Assembly: GCA_944377745.1 (NCBI GenBank)
Contig: CALWFV010000001.1
Span: 186,001-250,000 of the forward strand
Reading direction: 5' to 3'
DNA: 64,000 nt
DNA from: an uncultured Mediterraneibacter sp.
GTDB taxonomy: Bacteria; Bacillota; Clostridia; Lachnospirales; Lachnospiraceae
Shown: positions 5,705 to 9,545 of the stretch, in pieces
Position numbering within the stretch: position 1 is the stretch's first letter
How the letters are laid out: each line of letters opens with the position of its first letter
Position numbers and translations under genes: made by a program
The notes under the pieces: generated by a model
Told to the model about the DNA's origin: nothing
Database searches by the model: none
What the model saw: only the letters and a program-made list of their open reading frames with translations

Positions 5705-6214
5705 TTATACGTCAGGGCATGTCTCTATATTCAATATGCTTCCTAAGATATAACCGCAGTCCCAAGCCTGAAACTTCGGCTCATCGAACAGGAAACAAGG
5801 ATGCTTAAATACGCAGGGCAGACCATCAATATCAAACACAGGGATCCTCTCCCCTTCCGTCATCGGCACGATCTCAAGCGTCCCGGGAAATCTCTCCCCG
5901 AAGGCTTCCTCATCACGGTAAATCCTTCCCTGATATTCAGGGATTCTGAGAAAGCGTCCGCAAAATAAAAAATCAATCCTCCGCACGACCGTTCCTCCCG
6001 TGCCTTCTTCCGGGACAGGATGCACCGTTTCCTCCGCGCGTATCTTCATGATATCCACACCTAATGAACGGAAAAACGCTTTCTGCTTCTCTGACATGCC
6101 GTCACAAATTTTTTCATTTATCCGTTTATCTTCTGCGTAGTCATTTGACAGGTACAGTTGCCTTGTCGCCTCCACATTTATGTCTGTCTCCCAAGGATAA
6201 AACTCAAATGTCAT
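5705..6214 (-). CDS. Hypothetical protein, 169 residues
   Basis: I do not recognise a family. The protein is soluble, begins MTFEFYPWETDIN, and has no signal peptide or transmembrane segment. It has a run of acidic and aromatic residues and four cysteines spread through the second half. The ATG at 6212-6214 is preceded by AGAGGAGACAG, a good site; the open frame continues to 6268 but without a better start. It stands alone between the YhgE promoter and the type I toxin locus. The coding look is clear (GC-rich third positions, consistent with neighbours), so it is probably a real gene. Confidence 0.7.
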   Translation of the reverse strand: MTFEFYPWETDINVEATRQLYLSNDYAEDKRINEKICDGMSEKQKAFFRSLGVDIMKIRAEETVHPVPEEGTGGTVVRRIDFLFCGRFLRIPEYQGRIYRDEEAFGERFPGTLEIVPMTEGERIPVFDIDGLPCVFKHPCFLFDEPKFQAWDCGYILGSILNIETCPDV

Positions 6215-6327
6215 TTTCTGTCTCCTCTCGGCACATAAATTCACATGGATTTTCAGGTAACAGTTCATCCATCAGTGCGGTTTTCCGAATGACGCGGTTG
6301 AATTGTTACATTTTCATTTTCAAAAAC

Positions 6328-6356
6328 TTGAATCATCAGGAGCAATATGCTATAGT
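6328..6356 (+). promoter_or_regulatory. Promoter of the antisense RNA
   Basis: TTGAAT (6328-6333) and TATAGT (6351-6356) are separated by exactly 17 bp. Transcription should start near 6363, at the left end of the short RNA that faces the toxin gene. Confidence 0.7.
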
Positions 6357-6362
6357 GGGAAT

Positions 6363-6462
6363 AGAAAAGGAACAACCGCCCACAAGGGGGTTGACCTCGA
6401 AAGAATAACTTTATAGAATCGCCACTCCTTCGCTCGTCAAAGTTTCGGGGTGGTTTTTCTAT
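6363..6462 (+). ncRNA. Short antisense RNA, probable type I antitoxin
   Basis: About 100 nt from the promoter at 6328-6356 to an intrinsic terminator formed by CCACTCC (6422-6428) and GGGGTGG (6446-6452), followed by TTTTTCT. It carries a second stem around ACCGCCCACAAGGGGGTT (6374-6391). It converges on the toxin gene on the other strand, so it would pair with the 3' part of the toxin mRNA, as in txpA/RatA-type and Fst-type modules. No open reading frame of note. Ends are inferred from sequence signals, not measured. Confidence 0.65.
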
Positions 6463-6473
6463 GCCTTAAAACA

Positions 6474-6566
6474 TTACTTCAAGTTCGCGAAAACGAATGT
6501 CAGCAATGCCAGAATGAACATCCCAAAAGCCATCAGATCTTTAAAGTCAAACGGTTTCTTGTCCAT
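6474..6566 (-). CDS. Putative holin-like toxin (type I toxin peptide)
   Basis: A 30-residue peptide starting MDKKPFDFKDLMAFG and ending in a hydrophobic stretch (FILALLTFVFANLK): a short charged head, then one membrane helix with a positive end. This is the pattern of the small holin-like toxin family of Firmicutes, which depolarises the membrane when not held down by antisense RNA. The ATG at 6564-6566 has GGGGGTGG in front; an earlier ATG at 6579-6581 has no ribosome binding site. It has its own promoter at 6634-6662, and its 3' side overlaps the converging RNA at 6363-6462. Confidence 0.75.
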   Translation of the reverse strand: MDKKPFDFKDLMAFGMFILALLTFVFANLK

Positions 6567-6633
6567 CAGCACCACCCCCATTCTATGTAAGAATAGAGGT
6601 CAGCCACCCTGCAACACAGTTTTTCCTGTCCAT

Positions 6634-6662
6634 ATATTACCATAAGCACGCAATGTGTACAA
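6634..6662 (-). promoter_or_regulatory. Promoter of the holin-like toxin gene
   Basis: On the minus strand, TTGTAC (6657-6662) and TAATAT (6634-6639) are separated by 17 bp. The mRNA would start near 6627 and carry a leader of about 60 nt before the toxin ATG. Confidence 0.65.
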
Positions 6663-6694
6663 TATTATTTTATTATCACCGGAATCCTGCTTTG

Positions 6695-6730
6695 TAAAAA
6701 TAGCGCAGATAATGTCTCCACTATCTGCGC
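6695..6730 (-). terminator. Intrinsic terminator of leuS
   Basis: A perfect 9-bp stem, GCGCAGATA (6703-6711) and TATCTGCGC (6722-6730), is followed on the minus strand by TATTTTTAC. A second perfect hairpin with 10-bp arms (CTTATGGAAC at 6761-6770, its complement at 6778-6787) lies between this and the leuS stop; it lacks a U-tract. Confidence 0.8.
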
Positions 6731-6817
6731 CGTTTCCCTGAACAAATCTCCAGGCACTTTCTTATGGAACCGTTAATGTTCCATAAGCCTGTATGCTGTT
6801 GCGAGGTTTCCCCCTGA

Positions 6818-9250
6818 TTATTTCATTACGATATTGATGATCTTCTTCGGAACATAAATCTCTTTGACCACATTTCCTGTCAGTTTATCCGCGATCGCTT
6901 CTTTTCCTGCAGCAATAGCGTCCTCCTTCGAGATATCCGCGGAGATGCTGATGACAGCTTTCGTCTTCCCGTTGATCTGAACCGGGATCTCGATCTCATC
7001 ATCCTTCATCTCGTTCTCATCATAGGTCGGCCATCCTGCCTTGAAGACAGTCTCCGTATGTCCTAACTGCTCCCACATTTCCTCTGCGAAGTGAGGTGCG
7101 AACGGCGAGATCAGGACGGCAATGGTCTCGAGAGTCTCTTTGTCAATTCCGCCTTCTTTCTTGGCGACCTCGATGAACTTGTTGTTGTACTCCATGAAGC
7201 CGGAGATAACCGTGTTCAGGCTGAAGCTCTCCAGGCGGCTGGTAATATCGTATACCATCCTGTGACGGAGTTTGATCATCTCTTTCGTCGCCTTGATGTC
7301 CTTATCCTTGCTGTCCATGAGCAGGTTCCAGAGACGTTTCAGGTAACGGTTTACGCCGTCGATTCCTCTGTCGTCCCACTCTGCATCCAGCTCCGGCGGA
7401 CCCACGAAGAGTTCGTACATTCTCAGCGAATCGCATCCGTAATCTCTTACAAGATCATCCGGCGATACCACATTTCCTTTGGACTTGCTCATCTTGATCC
7501 CGTTCTTTCCGGTGATCATGCCCTGGTTGAACAGCTTGTGGAACGGCTCGTCAAAGTCGATCACGCCGATATCGCACAGGAACTTCGTATAGAATCTGGA
7601 GTACAGCAGATGGAGGACCGCATGCTCCACTCCTCCGATATACATATCTACCGGCAGGTATTTGTCTGCTTTCTCCCTGGATACCAGTTCCTTGTCGTTG
7701 TGGTTGTCCACATAGCGCAGGAAATACCAGGAGGAACCAGCCCACTGAGGCATGGTGTTCGTCTCTCTCTTCGCCGGTTTTCCGCAGACCGGACACTTAC
7801 AGTTCACCCACTCGTCGATAGCGGCAAGCGGTGACTCGCCTGTACCCGTCGGCTCGTAGGACTCTACATCCGGCAGGCGCAGCGGAAGTTCTTCCTCCGG
7901 CACCGGCACGCATCCGCAGTCCGGGCAGTGTACGATCGGGATCGGCTCTCCCCAGTAGCGCTGACGGGAGAATACCCAGTCACGGAGCTTGTAGTTTACT
8001 GTCGCCCGTCCGATTCCCATCTTCTCGATGATATGCGGAGCCTCTTTCTTGAGGACAGCGGACTCCATTCCGTTCCACTCTCCGGAATTGATCATGGTTC
8101 CGGAAGCTTCTGTATAAGCCTCTGTCATGTTTTCAATCTCTTTGCCGTCTTTCGCGATAACCTGGATGATCGGAATGTTGAATTTTGTAGCGAACTCAAA
8201 GTCACGGTCGTCATGAGCGGGAACACACATGATCGCTCCGGTACCATAGTCAGCCAGTACGTAGTCGGACAGCCAGATCGGTGTCTTCGCCCCGTTCAGA
8301 GGATTGATCGCATAGCTTCCTGTAAACACACCGGTCTTTTCCTTATCCTGCATACGGTCAACGTTGGACTTCATGGAAGCCTCGTAGATGTATTTCTCAA
8401 CTGCGTCCTTCGTCTCCGGAGTTGCAAGAGATTTTGCCAGTTCATGCTCCGGAGCCAGCACCATGAAAGTTGCTCCGTACAAGGTATCCGGTCTTGTCGT
8501 GTAGACTGTGATCTTCTCGTCACGTCCCTCTACCGGGAAATCAACTTCTGCTCCGTAGGATTTTCCGATCCAGTCTGTCTGCATCTTTTTGACCTTCTCC
8601 GGCCAGTCCAGCTTGTCCAGGTCATTTAACAGACGGTCAGCGTATTTCGTAATGCGGAGCATCCACTGGCGCAGGTTCTTCTTCGTCACCTCAGCGCCGC
8701 AGCGCTCACATTTTCCGTTTACGACTTCCTCGTTTGCCAGACCGGTCTTACAGGACGGACACCAGTTGATCGGGAATTCCTTCTCATATGCAAGACCAGC
8801 CTTGAACATCTTTACGAAGATCCACTGTGTCCATTTGTAGAAGTTCGGATCTGTCGTATTTACTTCCATATCCCAGTCATAGAGAGCTGCGATATCGTTG
8901 ATCTGTTTCTTGATGTTCGCCACATTCTCAGCGGTTGATTTCGCCGGATGAACGCCCATTTTGATGGCATAGTTCTCAGCCGGGAGACCGAATGCATCCC
9001 ATCCCATAGGGTGGATGATGTAGTATCCCTGCTGAAGTTTGTAACGGCTCCATACATCGGAGATGACATACCCTCTCCAGTGACCTACATGAAGTCCGTT
9101 TCCTGACGGATACGGGAACATGTCAAGACAGTAATATTTCGGTTTTTCCTTCCCGTTTTCATCCACCTTCGGATTGACCGGATCCTTCTCCCATTTCTCG
9201 CGCCACTTCTTTTCAATGGCTCTGTGATTGTACACGATCTTTGTACCCAT
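6818..9250 (-). CDS. leuS: Leucyl-tRNA synthetase
   Basis: 810 residues, the usual length for bacterial LeuRS. This cytoplasmic class I enzyme charges tRNA-Leu. Seen are the HIGH motif as HVGH (H54-H57), a zinc-binding pair CPSC/CERC, the CP1 editing domain, and KMSKS at about 586-590. A C-terminal region closes with the usual leucine-specific tail. The ATG at 9248-9250 (MGTKIVYNH) follows AGAGG; the frame remains open upstream through the T-box terminator and is not coding there. Expression is controlled by the T-box leader at 9271-9545, so the gene should respond to uncharged tRNA-Leu. It is transcribed alone. Confidence 0.98.
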   Translation of the reverse strand: MGTKIVYNHRAIEKKWREKWEKDPVNPKVDENGKEKPKYYCLDMFPYPSGNGLHVGHWRGYVISDVWSRYKLQQGYYIIHPMGWDAFGLPAENYAIKMGVHPAKSTAENVANIKKQINDIAALYDWDMEVNTTDPNFYKWTQWIFVKMFKAGLAYEKEFPINWCPSCKTGLANEEVVNGKCERCGAEVTKKNLRQWMLRITKYADRLLNDLDKLDWPEKVKKMQTDWIGKSYGAEVDFPVEGRDEKITVYTTRPDTLYGATFMVLAPEHELAKSLATPETKDAVEKYIYEASMKSNVDRMQDKEKTGVFTGSYAINPLNGAKTPIWLSDYVLADYGTGAIMCVPAHDDRDFEFATKFNIPIIQVIAKDGKEIENMTEAYTEASGTMINSGEWNGMESAVLKKEAPHIIEKMGIGRATVNYKLRDWVFSRQRYWGEPIPIVHCPDCGCVPVPEEELPLRLPDVESYEPTGTGESPLAAIDEWVNCKCPVCGKPAKRETNTMPQWAGSSWYFLRYVDNHNDKELVSREKADKYLPVDMYIGGVEHAVLHLLYSRFYTKFLCDIGVIDFDEPFHKLFNQGMITGKNGIKMSKSKGNVVSPDDLVRDYGCDSLRMYELFVGPPELDAEWDDRGIDGVNRYLKRLWNLLMDSKDKDIKATKEMIKLRHRMVYDITSRLESFSLNTVISGFMEYNNKFIEVAKKEGGIDKETLETIAVLISPFAPHFAEEMWEQLGHTETVFKAGWPTYDENEMKDDEIEIPVQINGKTKAVISISADISKEDAIAAGKEAIADKLTGNVVKEIYVPKKIINIVMK

Positions 9251-9270
9251 TTGATAATTCCTCTCTTTCA

Positions 9271-9545
9271 TAATAGAAAAAGCCTTTTCACTCTGAAAAC
9301 TCAAGAGACGAAAAGGCTTTGATTCCGTGGTACCACTCTTATTCATCTGCTTTTCTTCGCAGATGCACTCATTCATTCTGTAACGGGAACTCCCGCTCCT
9401 GCCTACTCTCCGCGCCGCGCTCAGGCGGTCATCCGTTTCAGCAGAAGGACTCCGAGATCAGTTCAGAGTTTACGCTGCTGCCTCGCACCTTCCGGCAGTT
9501 CTCTGAAAGCGGTACGCTCCTACTACTTCTCTTCTTCGTCTTTGT
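9271..9545 (-). promoter_or_regulatory. T-box riboswitch of leuS
   Basis: The leader contains the conserved T-box sequence around GTGGTACCAC (9325-9343). It is followed on the minus strand by a terminator stem whose halves read AAAGCCTTTTC and GAAAAGGCTTT (about 9278-9320), then a U-tract near 9271. A candidate specifier codon CUC (Leu) lies at 9454-9456 in the Stem I region. Binding of uncharged tRNA-Leu would favour the antiterminator and allow leuS transcription. The specifier is assigned by position and match to leucine; the full Stem I fold was not computed. Confidence 0.9.

What the first reader, a model, noticed from the sequence alone, without database searches (positions are those of the whole stretch)
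6328..6662. Complete type I toxin-antitoxin locus: 30-residue holin-like peptide facing a short RNA
Seen: a hydrophobic peptide gene on the minus strand with a 17-bp-spaced promoter, and a converging plus-strand RNA of about 100 nt with its own 17-bp-spaced promoter and terminator. Known: the txpA/RatA and Fst families have this convergent layout. Inferred: the RNA pairs with the 3' side of the toxin mRNA. The gene is too short for ordinary gene finders.
Basis: partly seen in the sequence, partly recalled or inferred. Interest (0 to 1): 0.72.

Follow-up and report, generated by a model that had tools for sequence, protein, structure and literature searches.

The report
Peptide toxin with twin-start antitoxin RNA
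This looks like a tiny bacterial addiction module, a 30-residue membrane peptide held silent by a facing small RNA, that recurs in many related gut bacteria and whose two RNAs begin with almost the same sequence.

Summary
Two convergent promoters (6328-6356 +; 6662-6634 -) flank a 30-aa hydrophobic ORF (6474-6566 -) and a ~97-nt plus-strand RNA (about 6363-6459) with one shared two-way terminator. The RNA model hits 38 of 120 sampled genomes of the family (Lachnospiraceae, inferred), the window's own included. The peptide is under purifying selection (pN/pS 0.07). Of 49 strong toxin hits none is shown to lack an antitoxin gene (41 adjacent, 5 diverged, 2 split by insertions, 1 at a contig end), whereas about 21 of 66 RNA hits lack a recognisable toxin. 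[quoted passage not shown] transcription and toxicity are untested. The peptide is a just-sub-threshold Hol_Tox (PF16935) relative. Unexpectedly, both RNAs of a locus start alike (22 of 31 positions here). This sameness co-diverges locus by locus in Hol_Tox loci (17 of 23 outside the family) and is weak in 5 of 6 Fst-type controls. New variant of a known kind; the twin 5' ends are the interesting part.

The parts
6328..6356 (+). promoter of the antitoxin RNA: TTGAAT, 17 bp, TATAGT with TG before the -10
   Evidence: conserved in the family
6363..6459 (+). predicted antitoxin RNA, about 97 nt
   Evidence: fold z -3.1; model R1, 38 of 120 family genomes; no Rfam match in the window
6373..6393 (+). 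near-invariant 5' hairpin of the antitoxin RNA, CAACC...GGUUG arms
   Evidence: 96% of outer-pair cells paired
6413..6462 (.). shared two-way terminator: stems 6413-6418/6457-6462 and 6422-6428/6447-6453
   Evidence: 91% of cells paired, 126 double-change cells in 156 copies; the profile matches itself on the other strand; use by both transcripts is inferred
6474..6566 (-). toxin ORF, 30 aa, hydrophobic
   Evidence: pN/pS 0.07 in the family
6574..6600 (-). mRNA hairpin that buries the ribosome-binding site GGGGG (6575-6579)
6596..6627 (-). toxin mRNA 5' leader, near-copy of the antitoxin 5' end 6368-6398 (+): twin 5' ends, 22 of 31 aligned positions identical
6601..6609 (-). leader segment GGGUGGCUG complementary to antitoxin 6373-6381 (CAACCGCCC), one A-C mismatch in this copy
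   Evidence: 83% of cells paired in 156 copies against 24-45% when slid, without covariation
6634..6662 (-). promoter of the toxin mRNA: TTGTAC, 17 bp, TAATAT (7 of 12 consensus positions)
   Evidence: family copies

Best explanation
A type I toxin-antitoxin unit. Shown from sequence: two converging promoters, a conserved hydrophobic 30-aa peptide gene, a conserved ~97-nt RNA gene on the other strand, a terminator that can serve both, a hairpin hiding the toxin's ribosome site, and twin 5' ends. Inferred: the toxin mRNA is poorly translated by itself because its ribosome site is in the hairpin; the antitoxin RNA opens its 5' hairpin onto the matching leader of the toxin mRNA (contact 6373-6381 with 6601-6609, extending across the twin region) and also meets it at the complementary terminator loops. 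This covers the leader where a ribosome could wait for the hairpin to open (as I recall for IstR-1/tisB) and offers double-stranded RNA to RNase III. If the RNA is lost or runs low, the mRNA is translated and the peptide inserts in the membrane. Chromosomal copies are scattered and often decaying; plasmid copies would act as addiction modules. The pairing is hardly locus-specific within the family, so RNAs of one copy probably silence others.
For: Recurrence of the unit. Purifying selection on the peptide: pooled pN/pS 0.07 over 624 close pairs of 127 distinct coding cores; entropy by codon position 0.77, 0.25, 1.33 in 138 cores. Independent censuses in the same 120 genomes: of 78 listed toxin hits I assessed the 49 with >=40 bits; 40 have an RNA hit on the other strand within 60 nt and one lies at 62 nt; of the other 8, five carry a diverged RNA gene seen by eye, two keep the RNA 5' part but with an insertion in the terminator loop, one is cut by a contig end. 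The reverse is not so: of 66 RNA hits >=45 bits, 26 lack a toxin >=40 bits nearby; of these, two are the 62-nt and the insertion case, and of the other 24 one is cut by a contig end, two face a diverged toxin ORF, two face an unlike hydrophobic ORF and 19 none, so about 21 are without a recognisable toxin. Beside leuS in a sister genome the RNA is deleted and the toxin gene there is cut too. Leader hairpin: 84.6% of cells paired against 51-58% slid; own strands better than swapped ones, 18 of 5000 swaps reaching it. 5'-5' duplex mean -22.0 against -17.5 dinucleotide-shuffled, mean z -1.4; control against the ORF -0.08.
Against: No transcript, toxicity or half-life data. The 5'-5' contact is conserved but not supported by compensatory change: 8 double-change cells against 13-20 in slid controls; the leader hairpin's 48 double-change cells are also within its slid controls (21-73). 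The cofold gain in this copy is only -3.3 kcal/mol. Own RNA-leader pairs are barely better than mixed pairs within the family (40 of 5000 permutations). A generic direct-repeat score is weak (mean z 0.69), and the same score misses the repeats published for Fst-type loci (mean z 0.15), so it lacks power. The 29 toxin hits under 40 bits were not assessed for an RNA gene, so toxins without antitoxin may hide there. Pfam score 22.5 is just under the curated 23.3. A relative in the same Pfam family is named for inhibiting competence. The window's toxin promoter matches only 7 of 12.
Confidence: 0.78

Rival explanations
1. Same parts, but control as described for txpA/RatA: the RNA acts through the 3' overlap and RNase III only; the 5' sequences matter for RNA stability, not for pairing.
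For: The shared terminator gives complementary 3' parts by layout; 5'-5' pairing shows no covariation.
Against: Strongest conservation of the RNA lies in its 5' hairpin. In L352 and L353 an insertion puts the RNA 5' part 1985 and 1173 bases from the toxin start, breaking the 3' overlap, yet toxin ORF and both twin ends stay intact; the genome of L353 has no other R1 hit, though that search used filters that lose weak matches, while the genome of L352 has three further full copies.
Confidence: 0.25
2. The peptide is not an addiction toxin but a membrane regulator like the competence inhibitor ComI, with the RNA setting its level.
For: Only NCBIfam model matched at E<=1 is ComI (21.6 bits against cut-off 55); the B. 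licheniformis ComI peptide printed in PMC5503854 scores 38.2 bits on PF16935.
Against: No toxin shown without an RNA gene against about 21 RNAs without toxin, as expected if the peptide harms; multiple, decaying and plasmid-borne copies.
Confidence: 0.12
3. A small mobile element whose inverted promoters and twin 5' ends are terminal repeats; the genes are passengers.
For: Inverted similarity at both ends, several scattered copies in some genomes; 16 of 151 copies have a direct repeat of 7 or more bases between their inner flanks against 3 shuffled.
Against: Similarity stops outside the promoters (mean z 0.11, 9 of 151 above 2) and the flank repeats have no fixed length; some copies are tandem (L192, L209).
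Confidence: 0.07
4. Chance ORF and promoters in an AT-rich spacer.
For: Promoter and terminator scan of the region alone is within the shuffled range.
Confidence: 0.01

Closest known systems
PF16935 Hol_Tox peptides (TxpA of B. subtilis recalled as a member; ComI of B. licheniformis scores over the cut-off)
   Same: short hydrophobic peptide with an F-G-x-F-[IL]-[IL]-A-L-L core; family copies with the DRNNKRK tail score up to 48.5 bits
   Different: this peptide lacks the charged C-terminal tail, starts with a polar FDFKD segment and scores 22.5 against 23.3
txpA/RatA type I locus
   Same: convergent genes, related toxin family (recalled)
   Different: RatA overlaps the 3' end by about 75 nt with no complementarity to the initiation region (PMC4147584, passages); here the overlap is the terminator and the 5' ends match
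pAD1 par (Fst, RNA I/RNA II) and Lpt of L. rhamnosus
   Same: convergent RNAs; par shares a terminator and has direct repeats giving complementarity; Lpt has a 24-nt complementary repeat, an upstream helix and a stem-loop (PMC4147584 and PMC5608710, passages)
   Different: toxin of another Pfam family; Lpt's complementary repeat spans the start codon, here the contact lies upstream; in the six Fst-family loci tested twin similarity is weak in 5 (z -0.1 to 1.5) and 3.0 in one
[quoted passage not shown]
   Same: same species as the plasmid copies
   Different: known to me only through one passage of PMC6563280; the survey I took it to be is not held, so identity with this family is untested

Membership tests
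type I toxin-antitoxin systems | small hydrophobic peptide gene | tested here: met
type I toxin-antitoxin systems | antisense or facing small RNA with own promoter and terminator | tested here: met
   by sequence and conservation only, no transcript seen:
type I toxin-antitoxin systems | RNA pairs with the toxin mRNA | tested here: inconclusive
   3' overlap follows from the layout; 5' contact above shuffles but without covariation
type I toxin-antitoxin systems | peptide harms the cell and the RNA prevents it | not testable with these tools
   only the one-sided loss pattern
PF16935 Hol_Tox | score at or above the curated cut-off of 23.3 bits | tested here: not met
   window peptide 22.5 bits, E 1.1e-4; of ten relatives 5 score over 23.3, 4 score 17.7-22.6, 1 has no match
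Fst toxin family (PF13955) | match to the family model | tested here: not met
   no PF13955 match at E<=1 for the window peptide
pAD1 par-type control | shared terminator of convergent RNAs | tested here: met
   by sequence:
pAD1 par-type control | direct repeats in the DNA making the RNA 5' ends complementary | tested here: inconclusive
   CAACCGCCC / CAGCCACCC present, 83% paired in the family; generic direct-repeat score weak here (mean z 0.69, 4 of 51 above 2) and it also fails on Fst loci (mean z 0.15)
fstAT antitoxin RNA (RF01797) | match to the Rfam model | tested here: not met
   no match in the window at gathering nor at E<=5 in 6200-6820
ComI (NF052249) | score at or above cut-off 55 | tested here: not met
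   21.6 bits

The most novel reading that the evidence does not exclude
In Hol_Tox toxin-antitoxin loci generally, toxin mRNA and antitoxin RNA are kept with the same 5' end, and it is this sameness, more than complementarity, that is under selection. Both RNAs would then be handled by one common partner (a ribonuclease, an RNA-binding protein or the transcription start itself), or each hairpin would swap strands with its twin, so that toxin and antitoxin are decayed and paired by a symmetric mechanism that I have not seen described for type I systems. The sameness has been rewritten together in lineages whose sequences no longer resemble each other.
Probability: 0.4. Interest if true: 0.72.

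Novelty: new variant of a known kind. Interest (0 to 1): 0.52.

Why it matters
A toxin-antitoxin unit with a 30-codon gene recurs in about a third of the sampled genomes of its family (38 of 120), with several copies in some, and on mobilizable plasmids, where no gene is listed under the match (that gene table is incomplete). No Rfam family matched it in the window or in 11 further loci. It joins a Hol_Tox-like peptide to an RNA layout like that of par, which the review passages I saw describe as separate systems. The twin 5' ends give a concrete, cheaply testable question about how type I pairs recognise each other, and a sequence signature with which further loci might be found even when neither peptide nor RNA is conserved.

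Tried and rejected
Rfam: no match for this unit at gathering score in the window, none credible at E<=5 in 6200-6820, only tRNA and cobalamin hits in 11 family loci. PADLOC: none for two peptides. PHROGs: phrog_9488, unknown function. Phage records: no match by DNA or peptide. RNA model outside the family: 9 of 397 other phylum genomes at 29-36.5 bits; in the 10 loci scanned I recognised no Hol_Tox-like peptide. Class sample: 5 of 147 other genomes; 3 of these 5 (G676, G631, G670) show the layout by eye, 2 (G614, G621) do not. Locus-specific pairing within the family: almost none. A best-duplex test of leader against the facing strand in PF16935 loci from other families (23 parsed of 30; 7 dropped because no toxin was parsed) reached z below -2 in only 2; the later twin test on the same 23 was above 2 in 17, a choice of test made after seeing the sequences. 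Some of the 23 are near relatives (L100 and L102), so they are not independent. Fst searches in sampled genomes by PF13955 (0 of 249) and RF01797 (0 of 199, nothing rang in the controls) gave no control loci, so six plasmid loci were used; their leader windows may not cover the published repeats. Mobile-element reading: no similarity outside the promoters, slight excess of flank repeats. An ORF pattern found no toxin in L354, L357 and L358 although one search hits lie there, so it is insensitive; one search replaced it. Literature, search listings only unless said otherwise. None of the listed titles or abstract starts names this family or twin 5' ends; I opened passages of PMC6563280, PMC4147584, PMC6811638, PMC5608710, PMC11318856 and PMC5503854 and read no paper whole. 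Most subscription papers are not held.

Full report
Observation. The interval 6328-6662 holds, on the plus strand, TTGAAT-17-TATAGT followed by an RNA of about 97 nt ending in a GC stem and T tract, and on the minus strand TTGTAC-17-TAATAT (7 of 12 consensus positions) followed by a leader of about 60 nt and a 30-codon ORF with a ribosome site. By itself the scan of the region is within the shuffled range. Conservation settles the matter: a second copy at 88% lies in the same genome; 32 of 150 family genomes have a blastn match; a covariance model of the RNA (R1, from 50 copies) finds it in 38 of 120 family genomes, two of them with weak hits near 30 bits and one with seven copies. Both counts include the window's own genome. 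An exact-motif scan of named genomes for the RNA hairpin stopped at its limit with 119 stretches; of these I saw 80 rows (L135-L214), most titled Lachnospiraceae or genera I place there, others Eubacterium, Clostridium, Clostridia and one Bacteroidales bin. Eleven viral contigs and three Enterocloster bolteae mobilizable plasmids carry it too.

Data set. From 291 loci a script took 233 non-identical elements, of which 171 had a hydrophobic ORF behind a ribosome site; 15 of these were dropped by further filters on motif, position and score, and 156 were aligned. Conservation covers both promoters, the RNA 5' hairpin, the terminator, the ORF and the leader, and drops outside the two -35 boxes.

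The peptide gene is real. In 138 aligned cores of 18 codons (of 156) the entropy by codon position is 0.77, 0.25, 1.33, and pooled over 624 close pairs of 127 distinct cores pN/pS is 0.07. The window peptide scores 22.5 bits on PF16935 (cut-off 23.3); of ten relatives five exceed the cut-off, the best with 48.5 bits. So it is a diverged Hol_Tox relative, formally just outside. The only NCBIfam match is the competence inhibitor ComI (21.6 bits, cut-off 55), and the B. licheniformis ComI peptide printed in PMC5503854 (passages) is itself a PF16935 member at 38.2 bits.

Toxin and RNA belong together, unequally. In the same 120 genomes a search with a peptide profile listed 78 places. I assessed the 49 with 40 bits or more, not the 29 weaker ones: 40 have an RNA hit on the other strand within 60 nt and one more lies at 62 nt. 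I read the other eight: five have a diverged RNA gene with promoter and terminator (L354-L357, L359; by eye), two have the RNA's promoter and 5' part but an insertion in the terminator loop (L352, L353), one is at a contig end (L358). So no strong toxin was shown to be without an antitoxin gene. Conversely 26 of 66 RNA hits of 45 bits or more lack a strong toxin hit nearby. Two of them are the 62-nt case and the L352 insertion; of the other 24, one is cut by a contig end, two face a diverged toxin-like ORF (L361, L268), two face an unlike hydrophobic ORF and 19 face none. About 21 of 66 are thus RNA without a recognisable toxin. Beside leuS in a sister genome (G683, which has a full copy elsewhere) a remnant keeps the leader and the start of the toxin gene but has lost the RNA gene and the rest of the toxin. 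Loss of the toxin is tolerated and loss of the antitoxin was not seen: the pattern expected of an addiction pair, though it is inference and not a toxicity test.

Anatomy of control. The toxin's ribosome site lies in a hairpin: pairs p with 13174-p for p = 6590-6600 are formed in 84.6% of cells against 51-58% when slid; double-change cells (48) are not above the slid controls (21-73). In 114 leaders parsed of 156 the stem has 9.4 of 11 pairs; among 58 distinct stems own strands beat swapped ones (9.26 against 8.93), 18 of 5000 swaps reaching the observed mean. In 115 of 154 leaders at least four bases of the site are paired in the predicted fold. The terminator stem is paired in 91% of cells with 126 double-change cells, and the profile matches itself on the other strand, so it can serve both transcripts; the T tract on the toxin side is poorer. 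The RNA segment 6373-6381 is complementary to leader 6609-6601 in 83% of cells against 24-45% slid, but with only 8 double-change cells, fewer than the slid controls (13-20): conserved, not covarying. The 5'-5' duplex averages -22.0 kcal/mol against -17.5 for dinucleotide shuffles (mean z -1.4; 20 of 78 below -2), while the same RNA against the ORF gives z -0.08 (3 of 78) (every second of 156 elements). In this copy the predicted gain is -3.3 kcal/mol and the ribosome-site hairpin stays closed in the predicted complex, so I infer that the RNA blocks the leader upstream of the hairpin (a standby-type block, recalled from IstR-1/tisB) rather than the ribosome site itself. Mixed pairs within the family are nearly as good as own pairs (-21.4 against -21.8; 40 of 5000 permutations): copies should cross-silence.

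Twin 5' ends. The two RNAs of a locus begin with nearly the same sequence. Here 22 of 31 aligned positions are identical between RNA 6368-6398 and mRNA 6627-6596, 2 of 5000 mononucleotide shuffles reaching that score. In the family sample 71 of 78 have z above 2, mean 5.4. The sameness is found in PF16935 loci from other families as well: 17 of 23 above 2, mean 3.9 (7 of 30 loci could not be parsed; some of the 23 are near relatives). It is locus-specific there: among those 23, own pairs score 26.8 against 17.6 for mixed pairs, none of 10000 permutations reaching it, and the own leader is the best match in 13; with 36 diverse family loci added, 24.9 against 17.0, again none, but own is best in only 19 of 59, because leaders within the family are alike. 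Diverged loci make the point by eye: L357 has GGAACCUC in both RNAs where the family has GGUUGACC, and L355 has GGGAARCCAUAGG at both starts. In six Fst-family plasmid loci five scores are weak (z -0.1 to 1.5) and one is 3.0 with a promoter-like match, mean 0.9, against 41 of 51 above 2 (mean 4.3) in the family by the same method. That control is small, and its companion direct-repeat score missed the repeats published for Fst loci, so its windows may be badly placed. The similarity does not continue outside the promoters (mean z 0.11), which speaks against terminal repeats of a mobile element; a slight excess of flank direct repeats (16 against 3 of 151 at 7 bases or more) remains. Sameness is a stronger signal than complementarity in these tests. 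A hairpin shared by both RNAs makes them mutually complementary, so the two are linked; which one selection sees is open.

Comparison with the known. From PMC4147584 (passages): RatA overlaps txpA by about 75 nt at the 3' end and has no complementarity to the initiation region; par RNA I and RNA II share a terminator and pair through direct repeats. From PMC5608710 (passages): Lpt has a par-like layout with a 24-nt complementary repeat spanning the start codon, an upstream helix and a stem-loop. The present unit thus works, by anatomy, like par, but carries a Hol_Tox-like peptide and is not a member of the Fst family (no PF13955 match for its peptide). [quoted passage not shown] bolteae from an earlier survey; I could not read the survey (the one I took it to be is not held). 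Those may include this family, so the peptide may not be wholly new to print.

Verdict. New variant of a known kind. The twin 5' ends are the part worth a bench test.

Noticed in passing
window 6272-6314: About 40 bp upstream of the antitoxin promoter match many scattered places in genomes of the same genus, like a short dispersed repeat; it lies outside the conserved toxin-antitoxin unit.
   Followed up: no
window 9301-9545 (-): T-box leader (RF00230, 126.5 bits) at the 5' side of the ORF 6818-9376 (-), which reads as a leucyl-tRNA synthetase.
   Followed up: no
L192, L209, L199, L234, L237, L022/L356: Tandem arrays of two to four toxin-antitoxin units (393-396 bp apart in L192), in L356 with different RNA types side by side.
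   Followed up: partly
L352 and L353: Two units carry an insertion in the shared terminator loop; antitoxin 5' part and toxin start stay intact 1985 and 1173 bases apart: natural tests of whether the 3' overlap is needed.
   Followed up: partly
ComI of B. licheniformis (PMC5503854): The competence inhibitor ComI is itself a PF16935 member at 38.2 bits, so this toxin family and a named competence inhibitor overlap.
   Followed up: partly
L355, L356, L359; peptides alone in L218, L139, L146: A second related peptide type (ITYQDLFLF / VTYADLxQ); in the first three loci its antitoxin RNA ends in a GCCGTCACTA...TAGTGGCGGC terminator. The RNA of the last three was not looked at.
   Followed up: no
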